This document shows positions 1,098 through 18,217 of a stretch of DNA of 64,000 nucleotides, piece after piece. A program made the translations under genes and the position numbers. The stretch is from a virus. The notes beneath the pieces were generated by a model that searched no databases, had not been told where the DNA came from, and saw only the letters and a program-made list of their open reading frames with translations. Every line of letters begins with the position of its first letter. Positions within the stretch are counted from its first letter, which is position 1. The DNA lies in the IMG/VR virus record IMGVR_UViG_3300025674_000016, positions 1-64,000 of that record. The stretch is one strand, 5' to 3'.

Positions 1098-2168
1098 ATG
1101 CTATTGAAACGAGGGGACCGCAGCGAAGAAGTCAAAGCGGTTCAAGAAAAACTAAAACAATTAAATTTCTATGCTGGTGGTGTTGACGGCATCTTTGGCC
1201 AAAACACAGATCGGGCAGTTCGTTCTTTTCAGGCTTCACGAGGTCTTCTTGTGGATGGTGTCGTTGGCCCTCAAACAAACGCCGCTTTGCGAAAGGCTAC
1301 AGGGCAAAAAACAGCACCTTCTAGCCCTTTGAAAGCTCCAAGAGGCCAGAACTCCGTTCCACCAACTCACGACAGTATTTCGGCCTGTAGTCACGCTGCA
1401 TGGTCAAGGTATAAAAGTTTTAAAGATTGTTTATTGGGTAGCAACAATACAGGCGAGCATGTTTTCTATGGACCGGGGCGTGGCCTTTTTGAACAAGACA
1501 AATGGGTTGTCTCATATGGCCCAGGCAAGCTAGGCAGAAAAACATGGGCAGTTAAAGGCGGTAAGACAGGCCCAAGCTTGCACTGTTCTAGTTTAACAAA
1601 TTTATTTTTGGGATATCTGCTCAATTATAATGATAAGTGGACACACCAAGGCAATATGCCAGATCAAATGAAAATGTGTTTGCAAGATGATGGGCTGCAC
1701 CCGCTTCCTCAAAATAAAAAGATTAAGTATCGAGGATACGGCGACAATTGCATGCGCCTTGCAAGCAACGGCGATACCGCAGAAAGATGGGGTATTGGCG
1801 GCAAGTTTATGCACAACAGGCTTGATGCCCTTGAAGTCTGGGAGCGCAGAAAAGAACTGGCCACTTTCAATATCTGGGCTCAAAGCACAAAGAAAGGCCG
1901 CTCTTCAAAAATGAAGTGGGACCACCATGTAGGCTTATTTATTTATGACCATGCCGAAGACCGAATGTGGCGATTGGCTGCTGATGGCTATAGGGGCAGT
2001 GGCGGTGCTTATTCTGCAACGCCCGTTCAATATCGTGAAATAGATGCTGCTTGGTCAAAGCAAGACGCAGAAAACAAATTTTATCAGATTATGCGAATTA
2101 TCCCTGATGATGAGCATGGCAATTTTGGATTGGGCAGTGAATCTTTGCCAATGGAGGTTGAGGAGTGA
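1098..2168 (+). CDS. Cell-wall hydrolase with peptidoglycan-binding domain
   Basis: A 356-residue protein. Residues 1-68 are a PG_binding_1 domain (LKRGDRSEEVKAVQEKL, GGVDGIFGQNTDRAVRSFQ, LVDGVVGPQT). After a short Pro/Ser linker, residues from about 95 form a larger domain with Cys near residue 162 in SLHCSSLTN and a His pair near 275 in WDHHVGLFIYD. This spacing would suit a papain-like (NlpC/P60 or CHAP-type) peptidoglycan peptidase, but I could not match the family with certainty. An AAGGAG ribosome site lies eight bases before the ATG. No signal peptide is seen. It could be a lysin released at lysis or an entry enzyme carried in the virion. It is translationally coupled to the next gene. 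Confidence 0.75.
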   Translation: MLLKRGDRSEEVKAVQEKLKQLNFYAGGVDGIFGQNTDRAVRSFQASRGLLVDGVVGPQTNAALRKATGQKTAPSSPLKAPRGQNSVPPTHDSISACSHAAWSRYKSFKDCLLGSNNTGEHVFYGPGRGLFEQDKWVVSYGPGKLGRKTWAVKGGKTGPSLHCSSLTNLFLGYLLNYNDKWTHQGNMPDQMKMCLQDDGLHPLPQNKKIKYRGYGDNCMRLASNGDTAERWGIGGKFMHNRLDALEVWERRKELATFNIWAQSTKKGRSSKMKWDHHVGLFIYDHAEDRMWRLAADGYRGSGGAYSATPVQYREIDAAWSKQDAENKFYQIMRIIPDDEHGNFGLGSESLPMEVEE

Positions 2169-3661
2169 AAATTACAAAGACTGAATTAAAATCAATAATT
2201 TCAGAAGAGATGTCTTATGAGATCTTAGAACAAAGATTGGATTTATTAAACGAGGATCTTCGTTATATAAATAATAAAAAATTACTAAAGGAAGGTTTTT
2301 TAGACGCTGCGCAAGGTGTCTTGGACCTAGTTGGGCTAATACCTGGCGCTGGTGAGATTGCAGATGCTATTAATGGTGTGGTCTCTTTATTGAGGGCTCT
2401 TGTGGAGTCAGAAGGTAAATTTGAAAACGTATTAAATGCAATTTTTTCTTTTATATCAATGGTGCCAGCAATAGGAGATGCAGTTGGAAAAGGTGGCAAA
2501 CTTGGCATTTATTTTATAAAAATTTTAGATAAATTTCCCCAACTTAAAAAAGCGGGAGACTTAATTAATGCTGCAAAGAGCAATAAAAAATTAATGTTTG
2601 TTGTCACTAACGCTAAAAAGTTTTTCTCTGATCATGGTGACAAAGTAGTAGGTGTAGTGAAAGCTTTGCAAGAAAAAGATGTTGATTCTATCTATAGAAT
2701 TTTTAATATTAAAAAAATTAAAAATGAAAGAGTTCAACAAAAGATAGACCTCTTATTTGAACAAGGTCTAGAGGGCATCAGTGAAAGAATGCAGGGATTA
2801 GATACCGATTCTTTAACCAGTGCTATTGAAGTTCTTAATGGTTTAAATTTGCAAACAAATGAATCTATAAATAACCATAGTAATTCAATTACTAAATCAA
2901 AATTAAGACAAATTATTCGTGAAGAGTTAAATAAGCAACTCCATAAAGAAGGTATTTTTGATACACTTAAAGGCGCTTTTGGGGGCAAGAAAAGCACCAC
3001 TGGCGACTTGGATTTAGAAGCCAATGGGGACTTGGGTTCAAAGCTGGAAGAGAAAGAGAAAGAATTTAAAGCAGCAGGGACTATAGAAAAAGGAAGCCTA
3101 CGACAACCGTTTATAGATCTTGTTAATCAAGCCTTAGAAAGTAGTGATCCGGTCGCCAAAGAAAAGGCAAACGAAATAAAGAAAAAATATCGCTCTCTTT
3201 TTATAGATCCTGAGCCTTTCGATGGAAACTTGAGTTTATATTCAGGCAAAGATTTGAGTAGACAAGGTTTTAAAGGTAAAGACCTCAGAAATGTGAACTT
3301 TTCAAAATCCGATTTGCAAAATGCAAATTTTGAAAATGCTATTTTTTCTATTGACCCTGCTTTGGGTAAAGAAAATTACATTTTTTCTGGGAGTGACATT
3401 ACTGGGGCCAACTTCAAAGGTATAAGAATATATGTCCAAGGTTTAGATCAAAGTTGGCCAAAAGATGGAAAGCTCCCTTACACAGAGGAAGGTGAAGGAT
3501 ATATAGAGCGCCCAGAAGGAAACCTGCACGGCAGTCGCTACCGTCCGCGTGCTATGAGAGACTCTGACAGGAAAGCGCGGGCAGAGCACATGGAACTTTT
3601 CAAAAAGTATTTCAAAATGCTAACTAAAGGCTCGATCATAAAAGGGTATCCAAAATTTTAA
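2165..3661 (+). CDS. Putative packaged protein: two targeting peptides, hydrophobic domain, pentapeptide repeats
   Basis: A 498-residue protein with a GTG start, overlapping the previous stop, and GGAGG seven bases upstream. Residues 1-16 (MKITKTELKSIISEEM) match the N-terminal signature repeated in this region. LLKEGFLDAAQ follows, then a hydrophobic stretch (LDLVGLIPGAGEIADAI, ISMVPAIGDAVGKG) of the kind that precedes toxin domains or inserts in membranes. A second copy of the signature, ITKSKLRQIIREELNK, occurs near residues 242-257, again followed by KEGIFDTL. The C-terminal third has pentapeptide-like repeats (DLSRQGFKGKDLRNVNFSKS, DLQNANFENA). The layout suggests two once-separate capsid-targeted proteins fused in frame. 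The function is unknown. Confidence 0.75.
   Translation: MKITKTELKSIISEEMSYEILEQRLDLLNEDLRYINNKKLLKEGFLDAAQGVLDLVGLIPGAGEIADAINGVVSLLRALVESEGKFENVLNAIFSFISMVPAIGDAVGKGGKLGIYFIKILDKFPQLKKAGDLINAAKSNKKLMFVVTNAKKFFSDHGDKVVGVVKALQEKDVDSIYRIFNIKKIKNERVQQKIDLLFEQGLEGISERMQGLDTDSLTSAIEVLNGLNLQTNESINNHSNSITKSKLRQIIREELNKQLHKEGIFDTLKGAFGGKKSTTGDLDLEANGDLGSKLEEKEKEFKAAGTIEKGSLRQPFIDLVNQALESSDPVAKEKANEIKKKYRSLFIDPEPFDGNLSLYSGKDLSRQGFKGKDLRNVNFSKSDLQNANFENAIFSIDPALGKENYIFSGSDITGANFKGIRIYVQGLDQSWPKDGKLPYTEEGEGYIERPEGNLHGSRYRPRAMRDSDRKARAEHMELFKKYFKMLTKGSIIKGYPKF
2891..2935 (+). repeat. 45-bp repeat encoding a targeting peptide, copy 1
   Basis: This segment inside the 498-residue gene encodes TKSKLRQIIREELNK and matches 3729-3773 at 42 of 45 bases. 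The match at DNA level, including synonymous positions, indicates a recent duplication, not just protein-level convergence. Confidence 0.8.
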
Positions 3662-3695
3662 ATACTCTTAGAAACCAACTAGAAGAAAAATAAAA

Positions 3696-3776
3696 ATGAA
3701 GAAGATCAGCAGAAAGAAAATAGAAATAACTAAATTAAAATTAAAACAAATTATTCGTGAAGAGCTAAATAAGTGA
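3696..3776 (+). CDS. 26-residue mini-ORF consisting only of a targeting peptide
   Basis: The ATG at 3696 opens a 26-codon frame whose product begins MKKISRKKIEITK and ends LKQIIREELNK. It is nothing more than the signature peptide that starts many neighbouring proteins. Its first 33 bases match the start of the gene at 4145 (30 of 33), and its last 45 bases match 2891-2935 (42 of 45), so it is a chimera of two neighbours. A purine-rich AGAAGAAAA precedes it. It may be a translated stub, a decayed gene whose cargo was lost, or a duplication scar. Confidence 0.45.
   Translation: MKKISRKKIEITKLKLKQIIREELNK
3729..3773 (+). repeat. 45-bp repeat encoding a targeting peptide, copy 2
   Basis: This is the second copy of the segment at 2891-2935, with three base differences. 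It forms the 3' half of the 26-codon mini-ORF and ends directly before its stop codon. Confidence 0.8.
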
Positions 3777-3788
3777 TATAATGAATCC

Positions 3789-4369: not shown

Positions 4370-4370
4370 G

Positions 4371-4929: not shown

Positions 4930-5128
4930 TTATCTTTCTTGGGCCAGTGGCAAGACAAGCCAAGCTCAGGAATCAAATAAAGGATCTATTTATAAAGACG
5001 AACAATCTATAGATGTTAAGCAAATAGAAAAGCTTGACGAAGAACTACTTGATCTCAAACAACAAATAACAGAGATCAAAAGGAAGCAGCAAAATGATAA
5101 GGATTATAATCAGAGGAAAAGACGGTAA
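4865..5128 (+). CDS. Membrane-anchored coiled-coil protein, overlapping partner
   Basis: An 87-residue protein with start at 4865, or at 4871 (MKLSKTLRIF). A hydrophobic stretch, IFSGIAFVLLISYLSWASG, is followed by a charged helical tail (DVKQIEKLDEELLDLKQQIT) and a basic end. It overlaps the previous gene by 65 bases in another frame and overlaps the next by 35. The topology, one inner-membrane helix plus periplasmic or cytoplasmic coiled coil, is that of an Rz-like inner spanin. No sequence family is recognised. Confidence 0.55.
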   Translation: MPMKLSKTLRIFSGIAFVLLISYLSWASGKTSQAQESNKGSIYKDEQSIDVKQIEKLDEELLDLKQQITEIKRKQQNDKDYNQRKRR

Positions 5129-5693
5129 AGCCAAGCTTTGCCCCGAAGCAACTCAAGATCTCGAATTAAATACAAAAAATAGGGACGCCTCTATAAAAGC
5201 AGATCATATACAATATGGCCCTCTTAATGTTGATGAGCCGGGTAGCTACTGGAAGGATATTGCAGACCACTGGGATACTGCCGAGGAGGCTGCAAAAAAA
5301 TCTCTTTGTGGTAACTGTGTTGCATTTGATATCTCTCCAAGAATGAAAGATTGTATGCCAGGTGAAACGTCTGATGACGACGGTGAGCTAGGCTATTGCT
5401 GGATGCATCATTTTAAATGTCACTCTGCAAGATCTTGCCGAACATGGGCAAAAGGTGGCCCAATCAAAAACGACGAAAAGTCAAAAGAATGGCAAGACAA
5501 AAACAAAGAACAATTAGACGAAAAGAAAAAGAAACGTAAAAAGAAGAAAAAGAAACGTAAAAAGAAGAAAAAGAAAGCAGGGGATAGATGTGTGAGAATT
5601 GCAAAGCGCAAGTATGACGTTTGGCCCTCTGCCTACGCCTCTGGCGCTGTAGTTAAGTGCAGGCAAGGTAAAATATGGAAGGGTGAAAAATGA
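5094..5693 (+). CDS. Cys-rich protein with Lys/Arg linker and KYDVWPSAYASGA module
   Basis: A 199-residue protein. The middle (about residues 71-124) is rich in Cys and His (SLCGNCVAF, MKDCMPG, GYCWMHHFKCHSARSCRTW), a likely metal or cluster site. A run of about 20 Lys/Arg residues follows (near 143-162). The C-terminus, AGDRCVRIAKRKYDVWPSAY then ASGAVVKCRQG, is a module I recognise from marine phage proteins of unknown function. The same kind of basic linker occurs in the next three genes. The strong positive charge suggests contact with packaged DNA. No N-terminal targeting peptide is seen, so packaging here is inference. Confidence 0.7.
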   Translation: MIRIIIRGKDGKAKLCPEATQDLELNTKNRDASIKADHIQYGPLNVDEPGSYWKDIADHWDTAEEAAKKSLCGNCVAFDISPRMKDCMPGETSDDDGELGYCWMHHFKCHSARSCRTWAKGGPIKNDEKSKEWQDKNKEQLDEKKKKRKKKKKKRKKKKKKAGDRCVRIAKRKYDVWPSAYASGAVVKCRQGKIWKGEK

Positions 5694-6229
5694 TAAGAAT
5701 TAGAATTGTTTCATCACTAAAAAGCAAAATAAGAAAAGCTCTTCACGATGAAGGTGGCGCTGCCGGTATGGATGCCTTGATAAAACATACCGGCTCTGAC
5801 AAGCAAACTATAGATGCCGCTGTTCAGGAGATGCCAGATGTTGCGATACACAAGCACGGGGATTATATCATTGACGACGATGCTTGGGTGGATGTTGATG
5901 GCACTCAAAGAATAGATGAAAAAAAGAAGCGTAAAAAAAAACGCAAAAAAAAGAAACGTAAAAAGAAAGCCGGTACTGAATCCTCAAAGGAAAGCTCTTT
6001 AAGAGACTGGTTTGGCAGAAGAGGCGGTAAAGGCAAAGCCAAGGGCTGGGTTGATTGCAATACATGCCGCAAAGATAAGAAGACAGGTCGCAAAAAATGC
6101 AAGCCTTGCGGTCGCCAAAAAGGCGAAAAAAGATCAAAATATCCAGCTTGCCGACCAACGCCCGGAGCCTGCGAAGAAAGAGGTCGTGGTAAGAGTTGGG
6201 GCAAAAAATCCAAAAAGGGGAAAAAATAA
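5690..6229 (+). CDS. Basic protein with Lys/Arg linker and CRPTP Cys-rich tail
   Basis: A 179-residue protein. The N-terminal 65 residues look like a small helix-turn-helix-like fold (HDEGGAAGMDALIKHTGSDK, IDAAVQEMPDVAIHKHGDYI). A Lys/Arg block of about 20 residues comes next, then a Cys-rich basic tail: WVDCNTCRKDKKTGRKKCKP, CGRQKGEKRSKYPACRPTPG and ACEERGRGKSWGKKS. The tail is a conserved module in marine phage proteins, with six Cys that could bind metal. The ATG overlaps the previous stop and the gene is coupled to the next by TAATG. Minus-strand frames opposite the Lys block are poly-Phe shadows. Confidence 0.7.
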   Translation: MIRIRIVSSLKSKIRKALHDEGGAAGMDALIKHTGSDKQTIDAAVQEMPDVAIHKHGDYIIDDDAWVDVDGTQRIDEKKKRKKKRKKKKRKKKAGTESSKESSLRDWFGRRGGKGKAKGWVDCNTCRKDKKTGRKKCKPCGRQKGEKRSKYPACRPTPGACEERGRGKSWGKKSKKGKK

Positions 6230-6486
6230 TGAAACTAACAAAAAGTCTATTGGAGTCTCTAATCAGGGAAGCACTAGAAGAGACAGGATGTAGAGGAAGA
6301 GAACTAGAAGAAGGCAACTGTGTAAGCGAAGAAGAACAAACTTTAGAGGAAAAGAAAAAGAAGAAAAAGAAAAAATCCAAAAAAGTTGAAAACCCAAGAA
6401 AGTACAAAAAGAGGAATTACGATAGAGATGGTGACGGTGTTCCAAATGGGGCAGACTCTAAACCAGATGATGGTAGTAAATCATGA
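6229..6486 (+). CDS. Small putative packaged protein with targeting peptide and Ca-binding-like motif
   Basis: An 85-residue protein beginning MKLTKSLLESLIREALEETG, a clear copy of the signature peptide with L-I-R-E|A as a possible processing site. RELEEG follows, a second L-x-E|G site. An eight-Lys run comes next, and the C-terminal part RDGDGVPNGADSKPDDG resembles a DxDxDG calcium-binding loop of thrombospondin type-3 or dockerin style. I chose the start at 6229 over an upstream in-frame ATG because the signature peptide begins there and the TAATG overlap is typical of this operon. Confidence 0.65.
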   Translation: MKLTKSLLESLIREALEETGCRGRELEEGNCVSEEEQTLEEKKKKKKKKSKKVENPRKYKKRNYDRDGDGVPNGADSKPDDGSKS

Positions 6487-7076
6487 AAATGCAAAACTTA
6501 TTTGAAGGCTTCAGAAAATGGTCAAATGAAAAGCCTATTATTTCTGAGGCTCTTCAGTATCACATAGATCACGATGTTGGAATTGATAGAAATGTATTCA
6601 GGCCGGGATCTAAAGAGTTTTTATCTTTATTCAAAGAAGTTAGAGATCTCTATAATAAAGGCCAATACAAACTAAACGAAGGTGAAGAATATTATATTCT
6701 CGAAACAGACATAGGCGAATACGCTTTATATGAAGGCGAGATGGTCCCTCTTGATATGCCGATGCCGATTGAGGAAGCTAAAAAGAGGCGTAAAAAAAAG
6801 AAAAAGAAAAACCCTCCTCTCAACAAACCTTCGCTAAACACAGGCGGCGGCAAAAAGTGGAAAGTCTTTGTTCGAAGTAAATCAGGTGGTGTTAAAAAAG
6901 TTACCTTTGGAGACAAGAAAGGCGGATTGAAAGGCAACTGGAATGATCCAAAAGCTCGCGCATCTTTTGCAAAAAGACACAAGTGTGCAGAGAAAAAAGA
7001 TAAAACCAAAGCAGGCTACTGGTCTTGTAGGGCACACAAATACTTTGGCAAGAATGTCCCAGGCCGTTTCTGGTGA
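6483..7076 (+). CDS. Putative packaged protein with Lys/Arg linker and YWSCRAHKYFG module
   Basis: A 197-residue protein beginning MKMQNLFEGFRKWSNEKPII, a second signature class (LFExxRxW) also seen at 7086. L-F-E|G and I-S-E|A are possible processing sites. A basic run, KKRRKKKKKK, lies near residues 100-109. The C-terminal domain (KWKVFVRSKSGGVKKVTFGD, ARASFAKRHKCAEKKDKTKA, GYWSCRAHKYFGKNVPGRFW) is conserved in marine phage genomes and carries two Cys. Its function is unknown. The ATGA overlap couples it to the preceding gene. Confidence 0.7.
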   Translation: MKMQNLFEGFRKWSNEKPIISEALQYHIDHDVGIDRNVFRPGSKEFLSLFKEVRDLYNKGQYKLNEGEEYYILETDIGEYALYEGEMVPLDMPMPIEEAKKRRKKKKKKNPPLNKPSLNTGGGKKWKVFVRSKSGGVKKVTFGDKKGGLKGNWNDPKARASFAKRHKCAEKKDKTKAGYWSCRAHKYFGKNVPGRFW

Positions 7077-7085: not shown

Positions 7086-8096
7086 ATGAAGTTAATCTTT
7101 GAAAACTGGCGGAGGCACTTAAAAGAAAATTTTTCTCAAGGGGGTGAATACTTCTTGAGGTTCGGAGACCCACGAGAGGTAAAAAACTCTGTTATACACG
7201 ATCCTAGAATGGAATATGAGCGACTATCTTCTGATGACTGGTCTAGCGGCATGGTGCATCAGAAATATGAAGCTGGTATTTCCGCATACCCAGTCTTGCA
7301 TTATGGTGAAGACAAAGTAGTTTTTGAAGCTCCTGTGGGGCTTGATGTTTTTGCCGGTCAGGCTAAAGGGTTTCTTTTCGATAGATTGCTTAATCAAGAA
7401 ATATATGTTTTCAAAGCAGACAAGCTAAGTAAGGCCGGAACTGACGGTGAGCCATTGATCATCGACAACACAATAGAGGATGTTCAAAGAATAAAACATA
7501 GAAATATCTATTTGGGACAAGAAATCTGGGATGAAAAAGAGAAAAAGGCCACTCTCATACAATACAAAAATATATTTGATTTCATCAGGCCATATGATAT
7601 TAAATTCGAATATGAAAATAGTTATGAAAAGTTTTTTGACTACGATAAACACACAACCATCGATAAACTTCTGCCCCCCGAAGAGGTAAAGAAAAAATAT
7701 CAAGCAGAGTTTGATAGACTAAAACAGATCTTTCCAACAGAGGAACACCGTAAAGTAATAGACGAACAAATAACAGATTACGACGAGGAACTTGAGTATT
7801 ATAAAGAGCGTTATAAAAAAAAACAAGCAGATAGCATGCCCTTCTCTCAAGAACAAATAGATGAGTCCACATTTATCAGAGAGTTTAGTCAGGACATTGA
7901 CAGTGAAGAACTTATCTGGCACATGGATCGTGAAGATAGAACCGTTACCATCCTAGAGTCAAGTGGCTGGGAGTTTCAAATGGACAATGAACTTCCAAAG
8001 ATATTAAAAGAAGGCGATGTGCTTTTTATTCCCAAATACACTTATCACAGGGTAATTAAAGGTAGTGGAAAACTTATCGTGGAGATCAAAGAGTGA
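7086..8096 (+). CDS. Putative packaged protein, C-terminal cupin-like domain
   Basis: A 336-residue protein beginning MKLIFENWRRHLKEN, the LFExxR signature class, with L-K-E|N as a possible processing site. Residues about 20-150 form an alpha/beta-looking domain (YEAGISAYPVLHYGEDKVVF, GFLFDRLLNQEIYVFKAD) that I cannot assign. The middle is charged and helical. The last 60 residues (ILKEGDVLFIPKYTYHRVIK) look like a cupin strand pair with a single His, so metal binding is uncertain. It is coupled to the next gene by an overlapping GTG start. Confidence 0.6.
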   Translation: MKLIFENWRRHLKENFSQGGEYFLRFGDPREVKNSVIHDPRMEYERLSSDDWSSGMVHQKYEAGISAYPVLHYGEDKVVFEAPVGLDVFAGQAKGFLFDRLLNQEIYVFKADKLSKAGTDGEPLIIDNTIEDVQRIKHRNIYLGQEIWDEKEKKATLIQYKNIFDFIRPYDIKFEYENSYEKFFDYDKHTTIDKLLPPEEVKKKYQAEFDRLKQIFPTEEHRKVIDEQITDYDEELEYYKERYKKKQADSMPFSQEQIDESTFIREFSQDIDSEELIWHMDREDRTVTILESSGWEFQMDNELPKILKEGDVLFIPKYTYHRVIKGSGKLIVEIKE

Positions 8097-9463
8097 TAAA
8101 GGTATCAGTTAAGAAAAAAATATTAAAAGAATCCCTCTCATTAAATGAGGGTTCCCTCTCAAGCAATCTTGGGTTTCCCAAATCCTTAGAGGAAGCTTTT
8201 GAAGATATTTTTGGCAATCGTGTCACAACATATGGCAAGTGGTTTAAAGAGTATCAGGGAAAGTCTAGATATGGCGGCCCTTGGTATTCTGGCATAAGCC
8301 ACTACCAATCACCATCTGACTTGAGTCTGCTTGATTGTGTAAAAATGTTGGAGGCCATTCGAGTAAATGATGAAGAAAGATTTAATCAACTTATAGAAGT
8401 AGACGAATGGAGCGATAGGGGTGACTCTAAATGGGCAAAGATAGGATTAAAAGAAAAAGGCATGCAGAATGCCAAGCCATACTTGGAAAAACAACTACGC
8501 GACGGCCTCGTTGATGATGCCACATTTTTTACAAGAGATATTGTCGAAGATCGTGAAAAAATAAAAAAACAAGAATTTAAGCAATATTCAAAAATGTCTT
8601 TTAAAGATGCGTCCGCCAAGTATTCACGAATCAAAGCTTTTTCCGAGTCAAAAGAAGTAATGACATTTGATGATGGCCATAGGTGGCTTGACGTTGGTCC
8701 TGAGTGTCAGTTTGTTGGAAGGGAAATGAAAAACTGTGGATCGACAGGCGTTATGTCTTTAGACTCTGACAAAACAATGCTGATCTTGGTTGACTCTAAA
8801 AACAAGCCAAGAATTGTCGCTACACTATCTCCAAATGAAAAAAGATTATCCGGCGTTGAGGGCTCTGCCGGAAGTCTCCCGAAAGAAGAATACTACGACC
8901 ATATCGTTAAGCTTGCAGATTTTCTAGATGTAAAATTTGATGTTACAAGATCTAATTCGTTTTTATTAAATTTGAAATATTTGTTCAGAGGGGTCAAGAT
9001 AAAAATCAAACGACTAAAAACAGATAACGAGTATGAGAGGCTTTATGAGATTATCTTACCAGATAAAAGAAAATTGTACTCTGATACATCCTATTTTTTT
9101 CTAGAAGATGAAGCAAGAAAAGCGGGCGAGATCTTAAATCAAAAACATTTCTCAAAGCCTGTTAATTTTTCAACACGGCTTAGGAACAATATAAAAAAAA
9201 TATTTCACGGCAGAAACCGGCAACTTGTTGGTGATAAGGTCGAATATTACACGATATACACTATAAGTCAATTCGCAGATGAATTAAGATCAACCTCTAA
9301 GCAACCAATCAAAGAAGAGATCCGCAAGACAGGCAGCAAGTGGTGTCTTTATTCCAAGAAGAAAACAAAAAAAGGCAAAAAGAAAAAGCTTGGCTGCTAT
9401 GGGACCAAGGGCGGTGCAAAGAAAAGAGAAAAGCAGGTACAATATTTTAAACACAAGGGGTAA
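8093..9463 (+). CDS. Putative packaged protein with PcfJ-like core and WCLYSKK C-terminal module
   Basis: A 456-residue protein with a GTG start. The N-terminus, MIKVSVKKKILKESLSLNEG, contains L-N-E|G, a possible head-protease site. The segment around residues 190-280 (WLDVGPECQFVGREMKNCGS, then MLILVDSKNKPRIVATLSPN) resembles the PcfJ-like/phage domain in which a GxxMxxC segment precedes a short beta-hairpin. The C-terminus (GSKWCLYSKKKTKKGKKKKL, GAKKREKQVQYFKHKG) is a recurrent end-module in phage proteins, here with the same Lys-rich linker seen in the neighbouring genes. The function is unknown. Confidence 0.65.
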   Translation: MIKVSVKKKILKESLSLNEGSLSSNLGFPKSLEEAFEDIFGNRVTTYGKWFKEYQGKSRYGGPWYSGISHYQSPSDLSLLDCVKMLEAIRVNDEERFNQLIEVDEWSDRGDSKWAKIGLKEKGMQNAKPYLEKQLRDGLVDDATFFTRDIVEDREKIKKQEFKQYSKMSFKDASAKYSRIKAFSESKEVMTFDDGHRWLDVGPECQFVGREMKNCGSTGVMSLDSDKTMLILVDSKNKPRIVATLSPNEKRLSGVEGSAGSLPKEEYYDHIVKLADFLDVKFDVTRSNSFLLNLKYLFRGVKIKIKRLKTDNEYERLYEIILPDKRKLYSDTSYFFLEDEARKAGEILNQKHFSKPVNFSTRLRNNIKKIFHGRNRQLVGDKVEYYTIYTISQFADELRSTSKQPIKEEIRKTGSKWCLYSKKKTKKGKKKKLGCYGTKGGAKKREKQVQYFKHKG

Positions 9464-9468
9464 ATAAA

Positions 9469-9696: not shown

Positions 9697-9705
9697 AATA
9701 CTGTT

Positions 9706-10869
9706 ATGAAACTAACATCAAAATACCTAAAAAAATTAATATTGGAAGCATTTGTTGAAAAGCGTGGTAAATTTCTATGCTGGCATGCTTTTGGATGGGG
9801 TGGCCAATCAGCGGGACAGCGTGGCAAAATGGACCCAGAGCTTATGGATAAGTTTGGTGTCAAACTAAGAGCAAGAATGATAAAAGAGAAGGGCTTTACT
9901 CCTGGTAATGGAGCAATGTACGGAATGGGCGTCTATACCGTTATGGACCCAAGAGATATTAGTTATAATAAATACGGCCCTCTCGCGCTTCAATTTGAGA
10001 TTTCCAAATCAGCAGTCGATCAAAGTTTTCTTGTGATTCCATCTAACCATGACGATAACCAGATAGAAGACTATAAATCAAGTGCCACAACGATTGAAGA
10101 ACAGTTGGAGGCATTCGGCGTCCTCAACGAAGAAACAGCGGGGTTAGTCAAAAAACATTCTGATGAATATTTTGGTAGTGGGCTAGCACTTGAACTATCC
10201 AGACTAAAATATGTAAGAGACGCAATAAAAGGTCTCATATTTCATGGCGCTCAAGATGGCCATGTTCTGGTTTGTTATGACCCTAGCCTATTAAAACTAA
10301 CAGGATACACATCGTCAAGAAACAGCCAACCTAGATATACAACCGAGATTGAATTTAGATTCAATAAAAACCCAAAAGAAATCCACAAGATTGTAAAAAA
10401 CTATTTTGATTTCCCCAATTCAGAAAGTATTGATCAACAAATTCAAACTTGCCAATACGTTGACAGATTTATGTCTGATAATGAGTACTCAAAAGAAGCA
10501 ATGCTTGATCATGCTCGAAATGGATTAAGGGTGGAAGAGCTAAGAACATTAAAGACATACATGCCAGAAGATACTGAGTTGTTGCCCGACGATGCTTGGG
10601 AAAGGCCGAATGAAGATGACTATAACGAACATGACATACTTTATGATAAGTTGCTGGATGGTACTTTAATACGGGACGAAGAGCGTGACATTGACGAATA
10701 TGCCGATCTTACATACCTTGGTTCTATGATTGATACAGAAGCCCAGCAGTATAAAGCAAGAGCATGGGCAGATTTTGTCCAGTTTATTGAAGGCGGAGCT
10801 TTTGAAGAAATGATCTCCGGTCTAGATGGATCTAAAAAACTATTCGGGATTAAAAAGATTAAACAATGA
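9706..10869 (+). CDS. Putative packaged ADP-ribosyltransferase-like protein
   Basis: A 387-residue protein. Residues 1-18 (MKLTSKYLKKLILEAFVE) are the signature peptide with L-I-L-E|A as a candidate processing site. Behind it, FLCWHAF (His27), GMGVYTV (Tyr77), YNKYGPLALQFEI and LIFHGAQDGHVLVCYDPSLL have the order and spacing of the H-Y core plus the closing strand seen in PARP/ART-fold proteins. That assignment is inference from motif layout. No clear third catalytic Glu was placed. T4 Alt is a packaged, injected ADP-ribosyltransferase, which makes the idea plausible here. The C-terminal half is acidic and unassigned. The gene overlaps the next by ATGA. Confidence 0.55.
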   Translation: MKLTSKYLKKLILEAFVEKRGKFLCWHAFGWGGQSAGQRGKMDPELMDKFGVKLRARMIKEKGFTPGNGAMYGMGVYTVMDPRDISYNKYGPLALQFEISKSAVDQSFLVIPSNHDDNQIEDYKSSATTIEEQLEAFGVLNEETAGLVKKHSDEYFGSGLALELSRLKYVRDAIKGLIFHGAQDGHVLVCYDPSLLKLTGYTSSRNSQPRYTTEIEFRFNKNPKEIHKIVKNYFDFPNSESIDQQIQTCQYVDRFMSDNEYSKEAMLDHARNGLRVEELRTLKTYMPEDTELLPDDAWERPNEDDYNEHDILYDKLLDGTLIRDEERDIDEYADLTYLGSMIDTEAQQYKARAWADFVQFIEGGAFEEMISGLDGSKKLFGIKKIKQ

Positions 10870-12191
10870 AACTAACAAGCAATATTTTAAAAAAATTAAT
10901 ACTAGAAGCCCTTAGAGAAAAATACGACTACTCTAGCGAAGAAGATGAAAACATTAAAGCTCTTAAAAAATACAAGGCAGCAGGGTTGTCTGGCGTATCA
11001 CAAAGAATTGGTAAGTGCCTTATCAAAAACAAAGAATACGCAAAGGGTAAAAGCTCCTTTTCTTACGAGGATCGGCTTTGCTTAGAAGAACAAGGTTTCA
11101 CTAAGCTTGGGTTGGGCTCGTTTAGGATTGTGTTTTTAGATAATCAAAATAAAGATAGAGTTATAAAGCTTGCTCTCGACCTACCCGAACAAGAAGAGGA
11201 AGATGAAGAGGAAGAACAAGAGGAAGAAGAACAAGAACAGCAAGAAGAAGAACAAGAACAGCAAGAAGAAGAACAAGAACAGGAAGAAGATGAAGAAGAG
11301 GAAGAAGAAGAGGTAGAAATTTCTAAAGGCATGTCTATGAACTTAAAAGAGGCAAGTTTAAGACTCCAAACCTTATCCCCAATGTTCCCGAAAGTTTACA
11401 GCAAACACCCACATGGCATTTGGATCGAGGTAGAAAGAGTAAATATTTTTAAATTTAAACACAAGGACGATTATTTCGGCAATGAAAGTTGGGCTCCGAT
11501 AAAAAAGTTTTTTCCAAACTTCTCCAAAAATTACCAGAAATTCGATCAGATAAGGACTGAACTCAAAGAATTGGTCCCAGACCTGATAACCGAAGCCGCA
11601 GGGCAAAAATACACTCTTGATGACATACACAAACTGCTTCCGTTTACTAAAGAAAAGCCATTAGACAAAGCATTTATGATTCCAGACATCCATTCAACAT
11701 ATCACTCCATTGCGGATAAAGAAAGCGCGTTTGTGGCAACGTGGAGTTTGCTTATTATTGGCAATAAGGGGCTTAGGGGTAAGTCTTCTTATAAATTTCT
11801 TTATGACAATATAATTTCCCGTGTAAGAACTATGGTCTCCCAAGTGTTTGATCCCAAAGAAGAACAAGAAGAAGAAGAAGAAAGCTTTATTGATGATGAA
11901 TGGTTTGAGGATTTTGTGTTCGAAAACTTAGATAAAAATAATGCAGTTATAGAAGAAATTGTAAATAAAGTAGAAAATTATCTACAACCAAGATTGCAAA
12001 GCGCGTATAAACTAATTACAAGTGACCGTACTTACCAAGAGCTTTTGAGAGTTCATGACGAACTTGATGAAGATTTTCAATTATGGGATTTGAGGCCAGA
12101 CAACTTGGGATCAGCAATAAGAAATGGAAAAGAAACTCTTGTGCTCATTGATCCTGGTTTCGATATGGATATCGACCCCAGAAATAGATAA
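10866..12191 (+). CDS. Putative packaged protein-kinase-like protein with acidic insert
   Basis: A 441-residue protein. The N-terminus, MKLTSNILKKLILEALREK, is nearly the same signature peptide as in the preceding gene. Residues 80-103 (KLGLGSFRIVFLDN, then DRVIKLALD) fit a glycine-rich loop and the ATP-contacting Lys101. LWDLRPDNLG (Asp408, Asn413) fits the catalytic loop, and VLIDPG (Asp429) the metal-binding DFG-like motif. An acidic Glu/Gln stretch of about 45 residues sits between the Lys strand and the next helix, built from 21-bp DNA repeats. I read this as an atypical kinase or phosphotransferase, possibly delivered with the DNA like an early host-takeover enzyme. The substrate is unknown. 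Confidence 0.6.
   Translation: MKLTSNILKKLILEALREKYDYSSEEDENIKALKKYKAAGLSGVSQRIGKCLIKNKEYAKGKSSFSYEDRLCLEEQGFTKLGLGSFRIVFLDNQNKDRVIKLALDLPEQEEEDEEEEQEEEEQEQQEEEQEQQEEEQEQEEDEEEEEEEVEISKGMSMNLKEASLRLQTLSPMFPKVYSKHPHGIWIEVERVNIFKFKHKDDYFGNESWAPIKKFFPNFSKNYQKFDQIRTELKELVPDLITEAAGQKYTLDDIHKLLPFTKEKPLDKAFMIPDIHSTYHSIADKESAFVATWSLLIIGNKGLRGKSSYKFLYDNIISRVRTMVSQVFDPKEEQEEEEESFIDDEWFEDFVFENLDKNNAVIEEIVNKVENYLQPRLQSAYKLITSDRTYQELLRVHDELDEDFQLWDLRPDNLGSAIRNGKETLVLIDPGFDMDIDPRNR
11223..11285 (+). repeat. Three 21-bp tandem repeats encoding EEEQEQQ units
   Basis: Three consecutive 21-base units (GAAGAAGAACAAGAACAGCAA, the last differing by one base) lie within the kinase-like gene. Together with flanking GAA/GAT codons they create the long acidic insert. 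Tandem units of this kind are prone to copy-number change, always in frame. Confidence 0.85.
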
Positions 12192-12206
12192 GAGGAAATA
12201 TTGTCA

Positions 12207-12245
12207 ATGAAGATAACTAAATCTAAACTTGGAAGAAAAAAATGA
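12207..12245 (+). CDS. 12-residue mini-ORF starting with a truncated targeting peptide
   Basis: ATG at 12207 encodes MKITKSKLGRKK and stops, with AGAGGA upstream. The first seven residues repeat the signature peptide. The stop codon overlaps the ATG of the next gene. It may act as a translated leader for that gene or be the remnant of a gene whose cargo was deleted. Confidence 0.35.
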   Translation: MKITKSKLGRKK

Positions 12246-12496: not shown

Positions 12497-12560
12497 TGAT
12501 TTTAAACCCCTATTGACTATTTATTGTGAACGTTTAAACGATCAAAGGAGAACTTAACAA

Positions 12561-12986
12561 ATGAGTCAACAAAACACAAACAAAATTTTTAATCAATTAT
12601 TTTTACTTGAAAACCTTACCGCTGACACTACACTTGACGAGTTTAGTACCGGAAAGATTTATTCTCTCAACCCTACTGGCGCGATGGTTATCACACTACC
12701 AACCCCAGTAGCAGGCTGGAACGCTAGATTTGTTGTTGAGACAACCTCTCAAACGATTACACTATCGGGGAGCGCCGATGGTAACATCGTTGGTTTAATT
12801 TTTGGTACTGATGGTGGTGCCGGAAGCTCCAAAGACCTCGGCACCTTCGGTAATGATGCTGCGACTTCTGTGAAGACAAATTCTACTGAGTCTTTCCTTA
12901 GCGATAATCTTGAGATTGTCAGTACTGATTCCACGTTTGTTGTTATGGGTAGAGCTTCTAGCTCTGCTGGTTTTGTATTTGAATGA
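12561..12986 (+). CDS. Probable virion surface or structural beta protein
   Basis: A 141-residue protein rich in Thr, Ser, Gly and Val and lacking Cys. It has alternating strands (GAMVITLPTPVAGWNARFVV, TITLSGSADGNIVGLIFGTD) typical of small beta-sandwich virion proteins such as decoration or fibre-tip proteins. AAGGAG precedes the ATG at good spacing. It stands alone between the packaged-protein genes and the hairpin at 12993-13050. The assignment is by composition only. Confidence 0.55.
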   Translation: MSQQNTNKIFNQLFLLENLTADTTLDEFSTGKIYSLNPTGAMVITLPTPVAGWNARFVVETTSQTITLSGSADGNIVGLIFGTDGGAGSSKDLGTFGNDAATSVKTNSTESFLSDNLEIVSTDSTFVVMGRASSSAGFVFE

Positions 12987-12992
12987 TTTAGC

Positions 12993-13050
12993 TTTTTAAC
13001 CTTTCTATTCATTTCTGGTATAATATACCTCACACTAGAAAGGTTAAAAA
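12993..13050 (+). promoter_or_regulatory. 15-bp perfect inverted repeat that would hide the 2OG-oxygenase ribosome site
   Basis: TTTTTAACCTTTCTA (12993-13007) and TAGAAAGGTTAAAAA (13036-13050) are perfect complements separated by 28 bases. The right arm contains the GAAAGG ribosome site and ends one base before the ATG at 13051, so an RNA that includes both arms would sequester the start site. The spacer contains an extended -10 promoter (13016-13024), so an RNA begun there lacks the left arm and would be freely translated. T4 genes e, soc and I-TevI use this arrangement to silence readthrough transcripts. Confidence 0.7.
13016..13024 (+). promoter_or_regulatory. Extended -10 promoter inside the hairpin loop
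   Basis: TGGTATAAT is a consensus extended -10 element (TG-n-TATAAT). No good -35 is seen upstream, which extended -10 promoters do not need. The start of transcription would be near 13031, between the two hairpin arms. Confidence 0.6.
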
Positions 13051-13452
13051 ATGATTATCGGAACACCACACCAACCTTGGGAACTTCTCGACACCACAGC
13101 AGAAGACTTCCTCCTACAAATGCTAAAATACGGAAAACCTATTGAAACCTCGCTTGTTGGCTCATTTGATCAATCGGGGCGAGGCTCAAGAAGGGATATT
13201 CCGCTCCCATTTCATCGAGATGGCGACTACTCAAAAGAAAAAGCTTCAAAAAACAGCATAGATGTTGTCGGCCTCTTCTGTATTAGGGGCGGAGAAGCCA
13301 ATACCCTCATTAAATACAACGATAAAATAACATCATACAACCTCAAGAAAGGTCAAGGTATTATTTTTGATAATAAAGAAGTCCTACACGCCAGAGAAGG
13401 CGAGGTAGGAGACAGATTATTGCTTAGAGTGTGGGTCGAGAGGCAAAAATGA
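13051..13452 (+). CDS. Compact 2-oxoglutarate/Fe(II) oxygenase-like protein
   Basis: A 133-residue protein with the facial-triad pattern of 2OG-Fe(II) enzymes: His55 and Asp57 in PFHRDGDYS, His113 in EVLHAREGE, and a following Arg (122 or 126, in DRLLLRVW) that could bind the 2OG carboxylate. Strands between them (VVGLFCIRGGEANTLI, LKKGQGIIFDN) fit the double-stranded beta-helix. At this length it is close to the minimum for the fold. The substrate is unknown; options include protein, nucleic acid or a small metabolite. Expression is probably controlled by the hairpin/promoter just upstream. Confidence 0.7.
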   Translation: MIIGTPHQPWELLDTTAEDFLLQMLKYGKPIETSLVGSFDQSGRGSRRDIPLPFHRDGDYSKEKASKNSIDVVGLFCIRGGEANTLIKYNDKITSYNLKKGQGIIFDNKEVLHAREGEVGDRLLLRVWVERQK

Positions 13453-13772
13453 GCCTAGACCAAGAAAAAGCTAACAAAGTATGGAAGTACCTAGTTTTTT
13501 CTTTGTGTATCCTTAGTATTTTAGACTTACAGTTCACAATCTACGAGCTAGAGCTAGGAATAGCCTATGAATACAACATATTCTTAGCTAACGTGCTTCA
13601 TTTAGGCTATTTGCCTTTTATTCTAACAAAAACCAACATAACTTTAGCTTCTTGTGTTATATTATTAGCAGGAATAGACAAGATCTTTGCTAAAATAGGT
13701 GTTTTAGCTTGTAATCTTATTTATTTCTTTATTTTTGTTTATCATATCATCGGAATTGCAATCTACTCATAA
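13449..13772 (+). CDS. Small multi-pass membrane protein
   Basis: A 107-residue protein starting at the ATG that overlaps the oxygenase stop (MSLDQEKANKVWKYLVF). Three to four hydrophobic helices follow (YLVFSLCILSILDLQF, GYLPFILTKTNITLASCVIL, VLACNLIYFFIFVYHIIGIA). It resembles DUF5658-type small membrane proteins in outline, but this is weak. Coupling to the oxygenase suggests co-expression. Confidence 0.6.
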   Translation: MSLDQEKANKVWKYLVFSLCILSILDLQFTIYELELGIAYEYNIFLANVLHLGYLPFILTKTNITLASCVILLAGIDKIFAKIGVLACNLIYFFIFVYHIIGIAIYS

Positions 13773-13786
13773 CAAAGGAAGGAAAA

Positions 13787-14776
13787 ATGATTGTAGACGT
13801 TATCGTAGACTTACAGTATGGCGATTGTGGCAAGGGAAAAGTAACTCATCACCTCTGCAAGAAGGGTAAATACACCCATGTTGTTAGATATAACGGTGGA
13901 TGTAATGCGGGACACACAATTTATCACGAAGGAAGGAAGTTTGTAACCCATCACATCCCTGCTGGCGTCTTTTTTGGCGTTAAATCGGTCATTGGACCTG
14001 GTTGTGTTGTTAATGTTGATCGTTTTTTCGAAGAAATGGACATGTTAAGGGATGGAGGCATCCCCTATCTTGAAGATTTAGTTAAAATTGCTAAGAATGC
14101 ACACATTATTACAGACGAACATGTTAACTCAGACTCATCTGACACTAGTATTGGCACCACAAAGCGTGGTAATGGTCCTGCATATGCCGCTAAGTACGCC
14201 AGAACAGGGGTCAGGGCAGAAGATGTAAGAGAATTACAGCCTTATTTGGTTGATTTCTTTGAAGAAATGCATCAAAAGGACACTATTGCCCTGTTTGAAG
14301 GCGCTCAGGGCTTTGGTTTGGACGTTGATTGGGGTGATTACCCTTATGTTACCTCCTCTCACTGCACTGTTGCAGGTGCAATGCTCAATGGCATACCTCC
14401 AAAAGCCATTAGAAACGTTTGGGGAGTGGCAAAGTGCTATGAAACATACGTTGGAGCAAAGGATTTCGGTGGTGATGACCCTATTTTCGACACAATCTGC
14501 GAATTAGGACAAGAATATGGCGCTACAACGGGTAGAAAGCGCCAAGTTAACTGGATGGAGTGGGAATTACTCGAAAAAGCGGTTAAAATCAACGGTGTAA
14601 CCCATTTGGTGGTCAATAAAATGGATATTTTAAGCGAAATACAGCGTTGGAGCCTGTTTTGCAACAAAATTAAGCATAGTTTCCCCTCAGAGCAGTCATT
14701 TAAGACATATTTTGAAGAAAAGTTAGGAGAAACAGGCATTTCCATCTATTTTTCTGGTGATAAGGGTCGTATTTAG
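13787..14776 (+). CDS. purA: Adenylosuccinate synthetase (short phage/archaeal-type)
   Basis: A 329-residue enzyme. The family joins IMP and aspartate using GTP to make adenylosuccinate, the first step from IMP to AMP. The GTP loop QYGDCGKGK holds the catalytic Asp13. NAGHT, GTTKRGNGPAYA, FEGAQG, DYPYVTSSH and GATTGRKRQ are all present. It is about 100 residues shorter than bacterial PurA (around 430), like archaeal and viral forms. Phage PurZ, which makes 2-aminoadenine precursors, replaces this Asp with Ser or Gly. Its retention favours PurA activity on IMP or the PurZ0-like intermediate clade. GGAAGGAAAAA precedes the ATG. It probably raises adenine nucleotide supply during infection. Confidence 0.88.
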   Translation: MIVDVIVDLQYGDCGKGKVTHHLCKKGKYTHVVRYNGGCNAGHTIYHEGRKFVTHHIPAGVFFGVKSVIGPGCVVNVDRFFEEMDMLRDGGIPYLEDLVKIAKNAHIITDEHVNSDSSDTSIGTTKRGNGPAYAAKYARTGVRAEDVRELQPYLVDFFEEMHQKDTIALFEGAQGFGLDVDWGDYPYVTSSHCTVAGAMLNGIPPKAIRNVWGVAKCYETYVGAKDFGGDDPIFDTICELGQEYGATTGRKRQVNWMEWELLEKAVKINGVTHLVVNKMDILSEIQRWSLFCNKIKHSFPSEQSFKTYFEEKLGETGISIYFSGDKGRI

Positions 14777-14920: not shown

Positions 14921-16315
14921 ATGAGTAGCGATTCAAAACCTAAATTTAAGATAATCATTAAAGAACAGCAAGAAAAACAAGAGCTAGAAGAAGGTTTTTT
15001 GGATTATGTTAGTGTTATCGGCGGAGATATCAAAAATTCAGTACAAAACTACTTTAAGAGCGTTGGGGACAGAGCAAATACAAGATCAAATAGGAGAGCC
15101 GCCAATACATTAATAAAGAAACTACAATCACAATTGGCACCATTGAAGAAAAAGTGTGATAGAAACCCCTCACAGTGTGACGAAAGAACAAAAAAAATTA
15201 TTCAAAATCTTGAAGGGTTGATTAGCAATCTTCAAGAAAATCCAGATGGTACACTAGAGGCAATTGATGGAGATCGGCTCGATCTAAGTGCTCGACGGGT
15301 ACTAGCGCCGAGTACCCCAATTACGGGAACAAGATCAGAACCATCAGCACAGCCAGAAGCAGACGGTGGTCCAGCACAGTCAACAGAGCCCCCAGCGCAG
15401 CCAGCAGCAAGCGGTAGTCCAACACAACAACAAGATCGGCCAGCACAACAAAAAAAGCCCAAACCAGCACAAAAAGCTAGACAATTAAGAAAAAATCCCA
15501 AGCCTGGCAAGGTTCTGTCTCGTGCCTCTGCTCTCTATAGGCTGCAAGCAGCAGGTGTTGAAGATCCAAAAGAAAAAGCAACACAAATTTCTCAAACAAT
15601 TAAAGACTTCTTAAAAGACAACCCCTCGATAAAAAATAAAGTTAAAGTACTTGCAGAAAACGTAAACTTGACTGTTGGAAAAGAGTCACTTTTGGCGACT
15701 TTGAGGAAGAACCACTCTGATGTGGATACTAGAATACTTCAAATAATCGTGTCAGATATAGCCGCACAATTAAAGGCAAGTAGAGTAGAATTAATCTCAA
15801 CAAAGAAACAACTAAGAAAAAGCAAAGAACAGCAAAGAAGTGATTCTGGTGAAGAGCAAACTAACACCGATAGTGAAGAACTAGATCAAGAAACTGAGAT
15901 TGAAAATCAAGAAACAGAAAAGAAAACAATCTTTGATGAGTGGTTGCAACAAAATTTTGAAGACACAACTGTAGAAGAGTGGCTTGTTGCAAACAGTAAC
16001 CAAAAAGACCGACTTATAATCCAATTGCTTAGAAACTATCTCATACACCAATTACATGACAACAAACCAGAGATAAAACAAAATATTTTAAGAGGTTTTA
16101 TTAATTATCTGAAGAGAAACCTGAAAGATGAGGCCAAAGGTAGAGCTAACAAATTACATGGACTTTTTAATACAACAATTAATCCAGGGGGCGGTTTCAG
16201 AAGAAAAGATCTATCCAATTACACAATGACTGAGGGCAAAACTCTTCAAGAATCATTTAACAAAAGAAACCAAAAGATATATAATTCTCTATTAAAGAAG
16301 TTTTTAAAAAATTGA
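14921..16315 (+). CDS. Putative packaged or structural protein with Pro/Gln-rich linker
   Basis: A 464-residue protein. I chose the ATG at 14921 with GGAGG twelve bases upstream. The longer frame would start inside the terminator. The N-terminus reads MSSDSKPKFKIIIKEQQEKQ then ELEEGFLDYVSVIGG. L-E-E|G followed by FLDxV parallels LLKEGFLDA in the 498-residue protein, so a related processing site is likely. Residues about 140-195 are Pro, Gln and Ala rich (linker), and the rest is helical and charged. No enzymatic motif is seen. It is coupled to the protease gene downstream by a TTGA overlap. Confidence 0.6.
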   Translation: MSSDSKPKFKIIIKEQQEKQELEEGFLDYVSVIGGDIKNSVQNYFKSVGDRANTRSNRRAANTLIKKLQSQLAPLKKKCDRNPSQCDERTKKIIQNLEGLISNLQENPDGTLEAIDGDRLDLSARRVLAPSTPITGTRSEPSAQPEADGGPAQSTEPPAQPAASGSPTQQQDRPAQQKKPKPAQKARQLRKNPKPGKVLSRASALYRLQAAGVEDPKEKATQISQTIKDFLKDNPSIKNKVKVLAENVNLTVGKESLLATLRKNHSDVDTRILQIIVSDIAAQLKASRVELISTKKQLRKSKEQQRSDSGEEQTNTDSEELDQETEIENQETEKKTIFDEWLQQNFEDTTVEEWLVANSNQKDRLIIQLLRNYLIHQLHDNKPEIKQNILRGFINYLKRNLKDEAKGRANKLHGLFNTTINPGGGFRRKDLSNYTMTEGKTLQESFNKRNQKIYNSLLKKFLKN

Positions 16316-16923: not shown

Positions 16924-16933
16924 GAGAAAAACA

Positions 16934-17233
16934 ATGGCTAGCCCAAGAAAAAGAAGAGCATTGAAGCTTGCAAGAGCAAAAAGACTAGCAGAGGCAGCAA
17001 ATCCACAACCAGAGCCTAAAGTTGAAGAAACTTTGCCCGCAACTCCCCCTGCCCCTACGCCAGTTGAGGAGTTTAAGTGCGATAAATGCGATAAAGTTTT
17101 GGAGTCCAAAGACCAAGACTGCAAGGCGTGTGCAGAGCCTGGGCCTGAAAAGAAGAAACCTAGAACTAGAAGATCTAGAAAGAAGCCTGAGCAGGTTAGC
17201 GAGGCGGCTGTCGATGTCAAAACAGAAGAATGA
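16934..17233 (+). CDS. Small basic protein with zinc-ribbon motif
   Basis: A 99-residue protein starting at the ATG after AGGAGAAAAACA. It is basic at both ends (MASPRKRRALKLARAKRLAE, EKKKPRTRRSRKKPEQ), with a Pro-rich linker and a CxxC-x(11)-CxxC zinc-knuckle (FKCDKCDKVL, DQDCKACAE). Nucleic-acid binding is likely from charge and zinc knuckle. It overlaps the next gene by 20 bases. Confidence 0.6.
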   Translation: MASPRKRRALKLARAKRLAEAANPQPEPKVEETLPATPPAPTPVEEFKCDKCDKVLESKDQDCKACAEPGPEKKKPRTRRSRKKPEQVSEAAVDVKTEE

Positions 17234-17399
17234 AACAAGAGAGCTTTTAGAGTCTTTAATAAAAGAAAGATTAAAGATTGTAATAAAAAAGCTCTTGCTA
17301 GGTGAAAAGGAGCTTGAAGAAGCTTCTACAGTGGCCGGTGGCAGTGTAGCAGGTGCCCCAGTTAGCAATAATAAAAACAATTCTCTTATTGGAGAATAA
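17214..17399 (+). CDS. Small putative packaged protein with LEEASTVAGG tail
   Basis: A 61-residue protein starting inside the previous gene (MSKQKNETRELLESLIKERL). RELLESLIKE resembles the helical signature peptide at 6229. The tail ELEEASTVAGGSVAGAPVSN resembles a short motif (LEExSTMAGGAV-like) that recurs in marine phage proteins, and L-E-E|A could be a processing site. I accept the frame because both motifs lie in it and it overlaps the upstream gene in the way typical here. Confidence 0.55.
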   Translation: MSKQKNETRELLESLIKERLKIVIKKLLLGEKELEEASTVAGGSVAGAPVSNNKNNSLIGE

Positions 17400-17413
17400 T
17401 ATGGAGTCAATAA

Positions 17414-18217
17414 ATGCATATCAATCGAGACGAACTTATCCAAGAAATGATTCTTAGGAAGCAAATTAGATCGATTATAAAAGAATCGTCTAAGCAGTGG
17501 ATCAAGGACAACCACCCTAATGAATACGGTCAATTTTTGGAAGAACAAAAACTCAGAAAAGCTATTCAATCTATTGCTCCTAGAATCTTAAATGAAGAGA
17601 TGTCTGACTCTGAGGCTGAGGATATGGCTATCTCTTTCGTTAGAGAGACTTTACTAGCTGTGATCAAAATTGTCAAGCAAGATCAGTCAAAATTTACTAG
17701 TTCTGAGGTTCAGGATGGATTTATTAAATTTTGTTTATTGGCGCTTAAAAATGATTTTGAGGAAAACAGAGGAGAAGAGTTTGAAGAATCCTCAAATGTC
17801 TCAGAAGAAGATGAAGATCTAGCAATTCTTAAAGAATTAGAAGACAACAACGATGGAATTGTTGATGTCAAGGTTGGACCTAAAGATGACCCAATGTTTA
17901 TTTCAGATGAACCAGACGAGCCCGAAGAAGAAGATGAGGAAGAAGATCTTTCTCCAAGAGAAACAAAAGAACAAGAGCTTTATTTAACTTTAAGCGATGA
18001 AGAAAAAGTAGGCTTTAGATATGCCAGAGATAATACTTGGCCTAAAGTTACTAAGCAGATTAAAAAAATACACAAGCAAGTCCTACCTCATAAAAAAGCA
18101 GTTGATTATTATGAAGAATGGTTAACTAAAAACTTTAAGTTACATGGTGAAAATACTAAAGAAGAAATGCCTTTGAAAGGCGAAGAAGAGCAAGAAGAAG
18201 AATCTTTAGAGCTATAA
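17414..18217 (+). CDS. Acidic hypothetical protein, possibly packaged
   Basis: A 267-residue protein beginning MHINRDELIQEMILRKQIRS then IIKESSKQW. RKQIRSIIKES echoes the signature peptide, repeated as LRKAIQSI near residue 47. A strongly acidic middle (DEPDEPEEEDEEEDLSPRE) is followed by a charged helical end with YYEEWLTKNFK. No family is recognised. Acidic packaged proteins would be unusual next to the basic ones upstream, so the role is open. Confidence 0.6.
   Translation: MHINRDELIQEMILRKQIRSIIKESSKQWIKDNHPNEYGQFLEEQKLRKAIQSIAPRILNEEMSDSEAEDMAISFVRETLLAVIKIVKQDQSKFTSSEVQDGFIKFCLLALKNDFEENRGEEFEESSNVSEEDEDLAILKELEDNNDGIVDVKVGPKDDPMFISDEPDEPEEEDEEEDLSPRETKEQELYLTLSDEEKVGFRYARDNTWPKVTKQIKKIHKQVLPHKKAVDYYEEWLTKNFKLHGENTKEEMPLKGEEEQEEESLEL

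What the first reader, a model, noticed from the sequence alone, without database searches (positions are those of the whole stretch)
2165..18217. A family of short N-terminal peptides marks a dozen unrelated proteins as probable capsid-packaged, injected cargo
Genes at 2165 (twice), 3696, 6229, 9706, 10866 and 12207 start with, or contain, MK(I/L)TKxxLKxxIxE(E/A)-type helices. Genes at 6483 and 7086 start with MKxx(L)FExxR. Weaker forms occur at 8093, 14921, 17214 and 17414. Nearly all hold (L/I)-x-E followed by G or A (LIRE|A, LILE|A, LLKE|G, SLNE|G, ELEE|G), the specificity known for T4 prohead protease gp21, which trims internal proteins with capsid-targeting sequences. The bodies behind the peptides are unrelated to each other, as expected for a mobile targeting tag. 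This would be a large injected-effector arsenal in one 16-kb block. The peptide family is seen; packaging and cleavage are inference.
Basis: partly seen in the sequence, partly recalled or inferred. Interest (0 to 1): 0.9.

Follow-up and report, generated by a model that had tools for sequence, protein, structure and literature searches.

The report
Interchangeable capsid-targeting tags on phage cargo
This uncultured T4-like virus of bacteria, like many related ones, puts one of two short interchangeable N-terminal peptides on many otherwise unrelated proteins; all computed evidence says the peptides direct those proteins into the forming virus head, where the virus's own protease would clip them off before they are injected into the next host cell, but no virion has been examined.

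Summary
A profile built only from other contigs finds ten copies of tag 1 (MK[IL]TKxxLKxxIxEE) in this 155.7-kb virus, all on the coding strand, five in the window; a reversed-genome control gives none. A second tag (MKxLFExWRxYLxE) occurs at 6483, 7086 and elsewhere. The 'genes' at 3696 and 12207 are tag-only mini-ORFs; the four 'weaker forms' are not significant.

A gp21-type prohead protease (Pfam S77) lies outside the window at 89200. In 221 tagged proteins conservation ends at residue 22, on an enriched (L/I)xE site followed by G/A. The capsid propeptide ends in the same signature. Tags cluster upstream of the protease, are almost confined to viruses, and tags 1 and 2 replace each other before the same body in four families. 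210 tag-1 proteins form 164 body clusters; tagged cargo includes protein kinase, zeta-type kinases, GNAT, L,D-transpeptidase and LRR proteins.

Best reading: a capsid-targeting/prohead-protease system working like T4 internal proteins and Alt, with different tags and far more cargo. Packaging, cleavage and injection remain inference.

The parts
2165..3661 (+). Cargo gene (498 aa, GTG start): N-terminal tag 1 (2165-2230), later LLKE|GFLD site, then pentapeptide repeats
   Evidence: PSSM 33.4; Pfam Pentapeptide E 2e-8
2882..2947 (+). Second, internal tag-1 copy in the same ORF (NSITKSKLRQIIREELNKQLHK, then KE|GIFD); probably a fusion of two cargo proteins
   Evidence: PSSM 31.1
3696..3776 (+). 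26-aa ORF that is little more than a tag (MKKISRKKIEITKLKLKQIIREELNK*)
5094..5693 (+). Body without tag here; homologues in L013 and L277 carry tag 2
   Evidence: 83% identity over 124 aa
6229..6486 (+). Tag 1 (MKLTKSLLESLIRE|A) on a small Lys-rich protein
   Evidence: PSSM 12.0
6483..7076 (+). Cargo gene with tag 2 (MKMQNLFEGFRKWSNE..IISE|A); homologue in G057 has tag 1
7086..8096 (+). Cargo gene with tag 2 (MKLIFENWRRHLKE); weak cupin-like C-terminal part below Pfam cut-off
8093..9463 (+). Claimed weak tag (VIKVSVKKKILKESLSLNE|G); not statistically supported
9706..10869 (+). Cargo gene with tag 1 (MKLTSKYLKKLILE|A); body possibly ADP-ribosyltransferase-like; homologues in G057 and L277 have tag 2
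   Evidence: PSSM 11.0
10866..12191 (+). Cargo gene with tag 1 (MKLTSNILKKLILE|A); kinase-like motifs by eye only
   Evidence: PSSM 12.3
12207..12245 (+). 12-aa tag remnant (MKITKSKLGRKK*)
14921..16315 (+). Claimed weak form (FKIIIKEQQEKQELEE|GFLD); not significant on helix score
   Evidence: 4.4 against control maximum 8.9
17214..17399 (+). Claimed weak form; not significant
   Evidence: 4.0 against control maximum 8.9
17414..18217 (+). Claimed weak form; not among the 30 best windows

Best explanation
The peptides are capsid-targeting propeptides. During head assembly each amphipathic N-terminal helix (tag 1 or tag 2) binds the prohead core (scaffold or core proteins) and so carries its unrelated body into the prohead. 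The virus's gp21-type S77 protease then cuts after (L/I)xE, at the end of the tag, releasing the mature cargo inside the head, and the cargo is delivered to the next host with the DNA, as with T4 IPI-III and Alt. Shown by sequence: the tags, their modularity, swapping and duplication, the (L/I)xE|(G/A) boundary, the protease and T4-type head genes, the genomic association with the protease and head cluster, and the restriction to viruses. Inferred: binding to the core, cleavage, packaging, injection, and an anti-host role of the cargo.
For: gp21 homologue beside T4-type TerL, portal and gp23. Tag 1 pattern: at least 120 viral stretches, against 0 for the same codons in permuted order, and only 7 stretches, in four environmental MAGs, in 257 Gb of bacterial and archaeal genomes, two of those MAGs holding an S77 protease. 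S77 protease in 17 of 22 tag-bearing contigs, against 3 of 11 neutral ones (P = 0.009). Conservation ends at residue 22 with a second (L/I)xE site at P1 = 21/22 in 38% (1.3% expected) and P1' enriched in G and A. gp23 propeptide ends LRE|A here, and ISE|A, VSE|A, LSE|A, LTE|A in relatives and T4. T4 IPII and IPIII share MKTYQEFIAE|A with unrelated bodies; Alt starts MELITELFDE. 11 of 14 genomes under 200 kb have a tag within 20 kb upstream of the protease (rotation mean 3.4, sd 1.5). Four tag1/tag2 swaps. Tag DNA of 81406 and 82413 is 39/40 identical with background flanks on both sides. 210 tag-1 proteins give 164 body clusters. Core gene next to the protease has a tag-like N-terminus. T4 precedent: PMC9026906, PMC3012670, PMC12373910.
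Against: No virion proteomics or cleavage data for any phage with these tags; eight checked cultured relatives lack the exact patterns, although Flavobacterium phage immuto has a similar start, MKKSQLRQIIKE|A. In the largest genomes (over 240 kb) tags mostly lie far from the protease. One 125-kb tag-bearing contig (G005) has a terminase but no detectable S77 protease or gp23. Many tagged bodies are about 100-aa proteins of unknown function, which could be core components rather than effectors.
Confidence: 0.77

Rival explanations
1. The tags recruit proteins to the prohead core and are cut there, but the bodies are assembly aids (core filler, size control, DNA condensation) that stay in or leave the head; they are not effectors delivered to the host.
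For: Many tagged bodies are about 100 aa with no known domain; tag resembles the core gene next to the protease; tagged genes cluster with head genes; T4 core proteins are themselves cut to fragments (PMC9026906).
Against: Extreme diversity and turnover of bodies (164 clusters of 210) and enzymatic domains such as protein kinase, zeta-type kinase, GNAT and YkuD fit delivered effectors better than structural parts.
Confidence: 0.13
2. The helices are docking tags for some other phage or host structure (replication compartment, membrane, RNA polymerase, tail) and have nothing to do with the capsid.
For: Amphipathic helices can bind many partners; tags in genomes over 240 kb lie far from head genes; one tag-bearing contig with a terminase shows no S77 protease.
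Against: Enriched (L/I)xE|(G/A) exactly at the tag boundary, same signature in the gp23 propeptide, association with S77 protease and with the head cluster.
Confidence: 0.08
3. The likeness is an artefact: A-rich start regions conserved for translation initiation, low complexity, or plain homology of whole proteins.
For: Start regions are A-rich and codon entropy is somewhat lower in the tag than in the bodies.
Against: Synonymous codons vary; the permuted pattern gives 0 hits; reversed-pattern controls give 0 in all 34 records; bodies are unrelated.
Confidence: 0.02

Closest known systems
T4 internal proteins IPI, IPII, IPIII and Alt with capsid-targeting sequences (CTS), processed by gp21
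   Same: Short N-terminal peptide starting MK (ME in Alt), ending in a hydrophobic-x-E site; unrelated bodies behind shared peptides; S77 prohead protease; gp23-type capsid; one cargo family here may have the ADP-ribosyltransferase fold of Alt.
   Different: The tag sequences differ (22-residue MKITKxxLKxxIxEELxxxLxE and about 14-residue MKxLFExWRxYLxE, against 10-19 residues such as MKTYQEFIAE); two tag classes exchange on the same body; internal copies and tag-only ORFs occur; many more cargo families; packaging and injection not shown.
Diverse internal-protein (ip) genes of T-even phages (Repoila 1994, cited in PMC3012670; Silas 2025, PMC12373910)
   Same: Cargo recognised by a shared N-terminal leader, with non-homologous bodies and high turnover.
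   Different: At least ten Ips reported for T-even phages (PMC12373910); here 164 clusters in a sample of 120 stretches, and the cargo includes recognisable enzymes.
Phage P1 DarB capsid-targeting signal (PMC9024508)
   Same: An N-terminal 10-30 residue signal sends an injected anti-restriction protein into the capsid.
   Different: P1 Dar proteins share no common consensus by BLAST (PMC9024508).
Ejection proteins of giant phages phiKZ, 201phi2-1 and SPN3US (PMC5694885)
   Same: Inner-head proteins with propeptides removed by a prohead protease after a short motif ending in E.
   Different: Propeptides mostly over 100 residues; phiKZ protease is the type of family S80; no short shared tag.

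Membership tests
T4-type CTS / internal-protein system | Short shared N-terminal peptide in front of unrelated bodies | tested here: met
   210 tag-1 proteins, 164 body clusters; swaps; sharp DNA module
T4-type CTS / internal-protein system | gp21-type (S77) prohead protease in the same genome | tested here: met
   PF03420 E 1.3e-31; 17 of 22 tag-bearing contigs against 3 of 11 neutral; one contig with a terminase but no detectable protease remains unexplained
T4-type CTS / internal-protein system | gp21 cleavage signature (hydrophobic-x-E, then A or G) at the end of the peptide | tested here: met
   (statistical; not every member has it)
T4-type CTS / internal-protein system | Sequence homology of the tag to the T4 CTS (MKTYQEFIAE, MELITELFDE) | tested here: inconclusive
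   Resemblance by eye of tag 2 (MKLLFENWRKYLNE) to the T4 peptides; too short to test
T4-type CTS / internal-protein system | Protein present in purified virions, N-terminus processed | not testable with these tools
   needs mass spectrometry
T4-type CTS / internal-protein system | Peptide sufficient to package a foreign protein | not testable with these tools
   needs fusion experiments (done for T4 IPIII, PMC9026906)
T4-type CTS / internal-protein system | Injection into the host with DNA | not testable with these tools
   none
ADP-ribosyltransferase (9706 body) | ART fold and catalytic motif | tested here: inconclusive
   AF2 pLDDT 50; Foldseek best E 0.094, top hits almost all ART fold; no Pfam ART hit
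Protein kinase (10866 body) | Pkinase profile match | tested here: not met
   no Pkinase match; a tag-2 protein elsewhere (L283) does pass the cut-off
T4 superfamily (virus) | Gp23 capsid, Gp20 portal, S77 protease, T4-type terminase | tested here: met

The most novel reading that the evidence does not exclude
Uncultured T4-superfamily viruses share a general protein-delivery code: two or more interchangeable capsid-targeting tags that move as 40-66-bp modules between genes, with new cargo recruited by tag capture, including tag-tag fusions that the prohead protease would separate like a polyprotein. The tag then predicts capsid location and injection for a large class of 'hypothetical' phage proteins.
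Probability: 0.6. Interest if true: 0.88.

Novelty: new variant of a known kind. Interest (0 to 1): 0.8.

Why it matters
If true, a 22-residue sequence rule turns many anonymous phage genes into predicted capsid cargo and gives the mature N-terminus of each, so that new injected host-takeover or anti-defence proteins can be listed from sequence alone. In T4 the injected internal proteins IPI-III inhibit Type IV restriction enzymes (PMC12373910), so such lists are a likely source of anti-defence factors. The tags are also candidates for loading chosen proteins into phage heads in laboratory systems. Interchangeable tags make the recognition problem (what in the core reads two different helices?) directly testable.

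Tried and rejected
tblastn of a bare tag against cultured phages found nothing; a short, biased query, so not informative. Exact tag patterns are absent from eight cultured T4-superfamily or jumbo phages. A single-sequence AF2 model of 9706 was useless (pLDDT 33); the six-sequence model reached pLDDT 50 and gave only suggestive ART hits. Sequence search of 9706 in phages, PDB and viral contigs found no close relative; one was then found in G057. A GFLD motif after the site was partly due to an unrelated conserved VEGVFDA motif; after removing it the excess is 24 against 6, kept only as a hint. The kinase reading of 10866 rests on motifs only. A DNA-level explanation was disfavoured by codon usage. 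PADLOC found no defence family in the window cargo beyond one very weak match. Literature searches found no description of these tags in the library held.
Full report
What the virus is. The window is bases 1-64000 of a 155,702-base virus record. I read the rest as five stretches. Its head genes are of T4 type: terminase (Terminase_6N), portal (Portal_T4), prohead protease (Peptidase_S77, 106 bits), and capsid (Gp23, 243 bits). The best cultured matches for gp23, protease and terminase include Microcystis phage Mel-JY01, Flavobacterium phage immuto and Rhodothermus phage RM378, at about 30-54% identity. It is thus a distant, uncultured member of the T4 superfamily.

Noticed in passing
window 18798-19101 (+): Phage-encoded tmRNA with tag peptide DESQFEYAMAA.
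   Followed up: no
window 13787-14776 (+): Short adenylosuccinate synthetase (PF00709, E 3e-81, 329 aa); could be a PurZ-like enzyme of 2-aminoadenine DNA synthesis; its genetic partners were not looked for.
   Followed up: no
record G000 117990-118535 (outside the window): Stand-alone 181-aa protein whose N-terminal part resembles the gp23 propeptide region (KWEKTGLLDSLSDEKASKIAHLFENQA), matching gp23 N-termini in L057, L040 and L053; perhaps a free capsid-propeptide protein that acts in assembly.
   Followed up: partly
window 5094-7076: Long lysine/arginine tracts (KKRKKKKKKR...) in four neighbouring gene products, several also sharing small domains with relatives (L067, L122, L248); could balance packaged DNA charge.
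   Followed up: no
L256 (G057) 7595-14521: Six tag-1 genes with near-identical tags, five of them in direct tandem (7595-12585) and the sixth at 13496, apparently followed by leucine-rich-repeat bodies, suggesting rapid duplication of one cargo type; a further copy lies at 9-899.
   Followed up: partly
L027:4972-5511, L083:868-1482, L028:1518-2264: Tag-like helices at the C-terminus of tagged proteins (for example KIKKSQLKRIVKEELKRFLKNK*), reminiscent of the C-terminal processing of T4 Alt.
   Followed up: no
L248 (Flavobacterium phage immuto) 7930-9230: Two adjacent genes upstream of the terminase share another N-terminal motif (F-[DN]-L-[KR]-x-FL-x-EN-K-L-T-x-N-x-x-[IL]-L-K-E), possibly a third tag class.
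   Followed up: no
window about 23496-34599: Run of genes that look like glycosyltransferases, sugar-nucleotide enzymes and methyltransferases (by eye), partly syntenic with G057.
   Followed up: no
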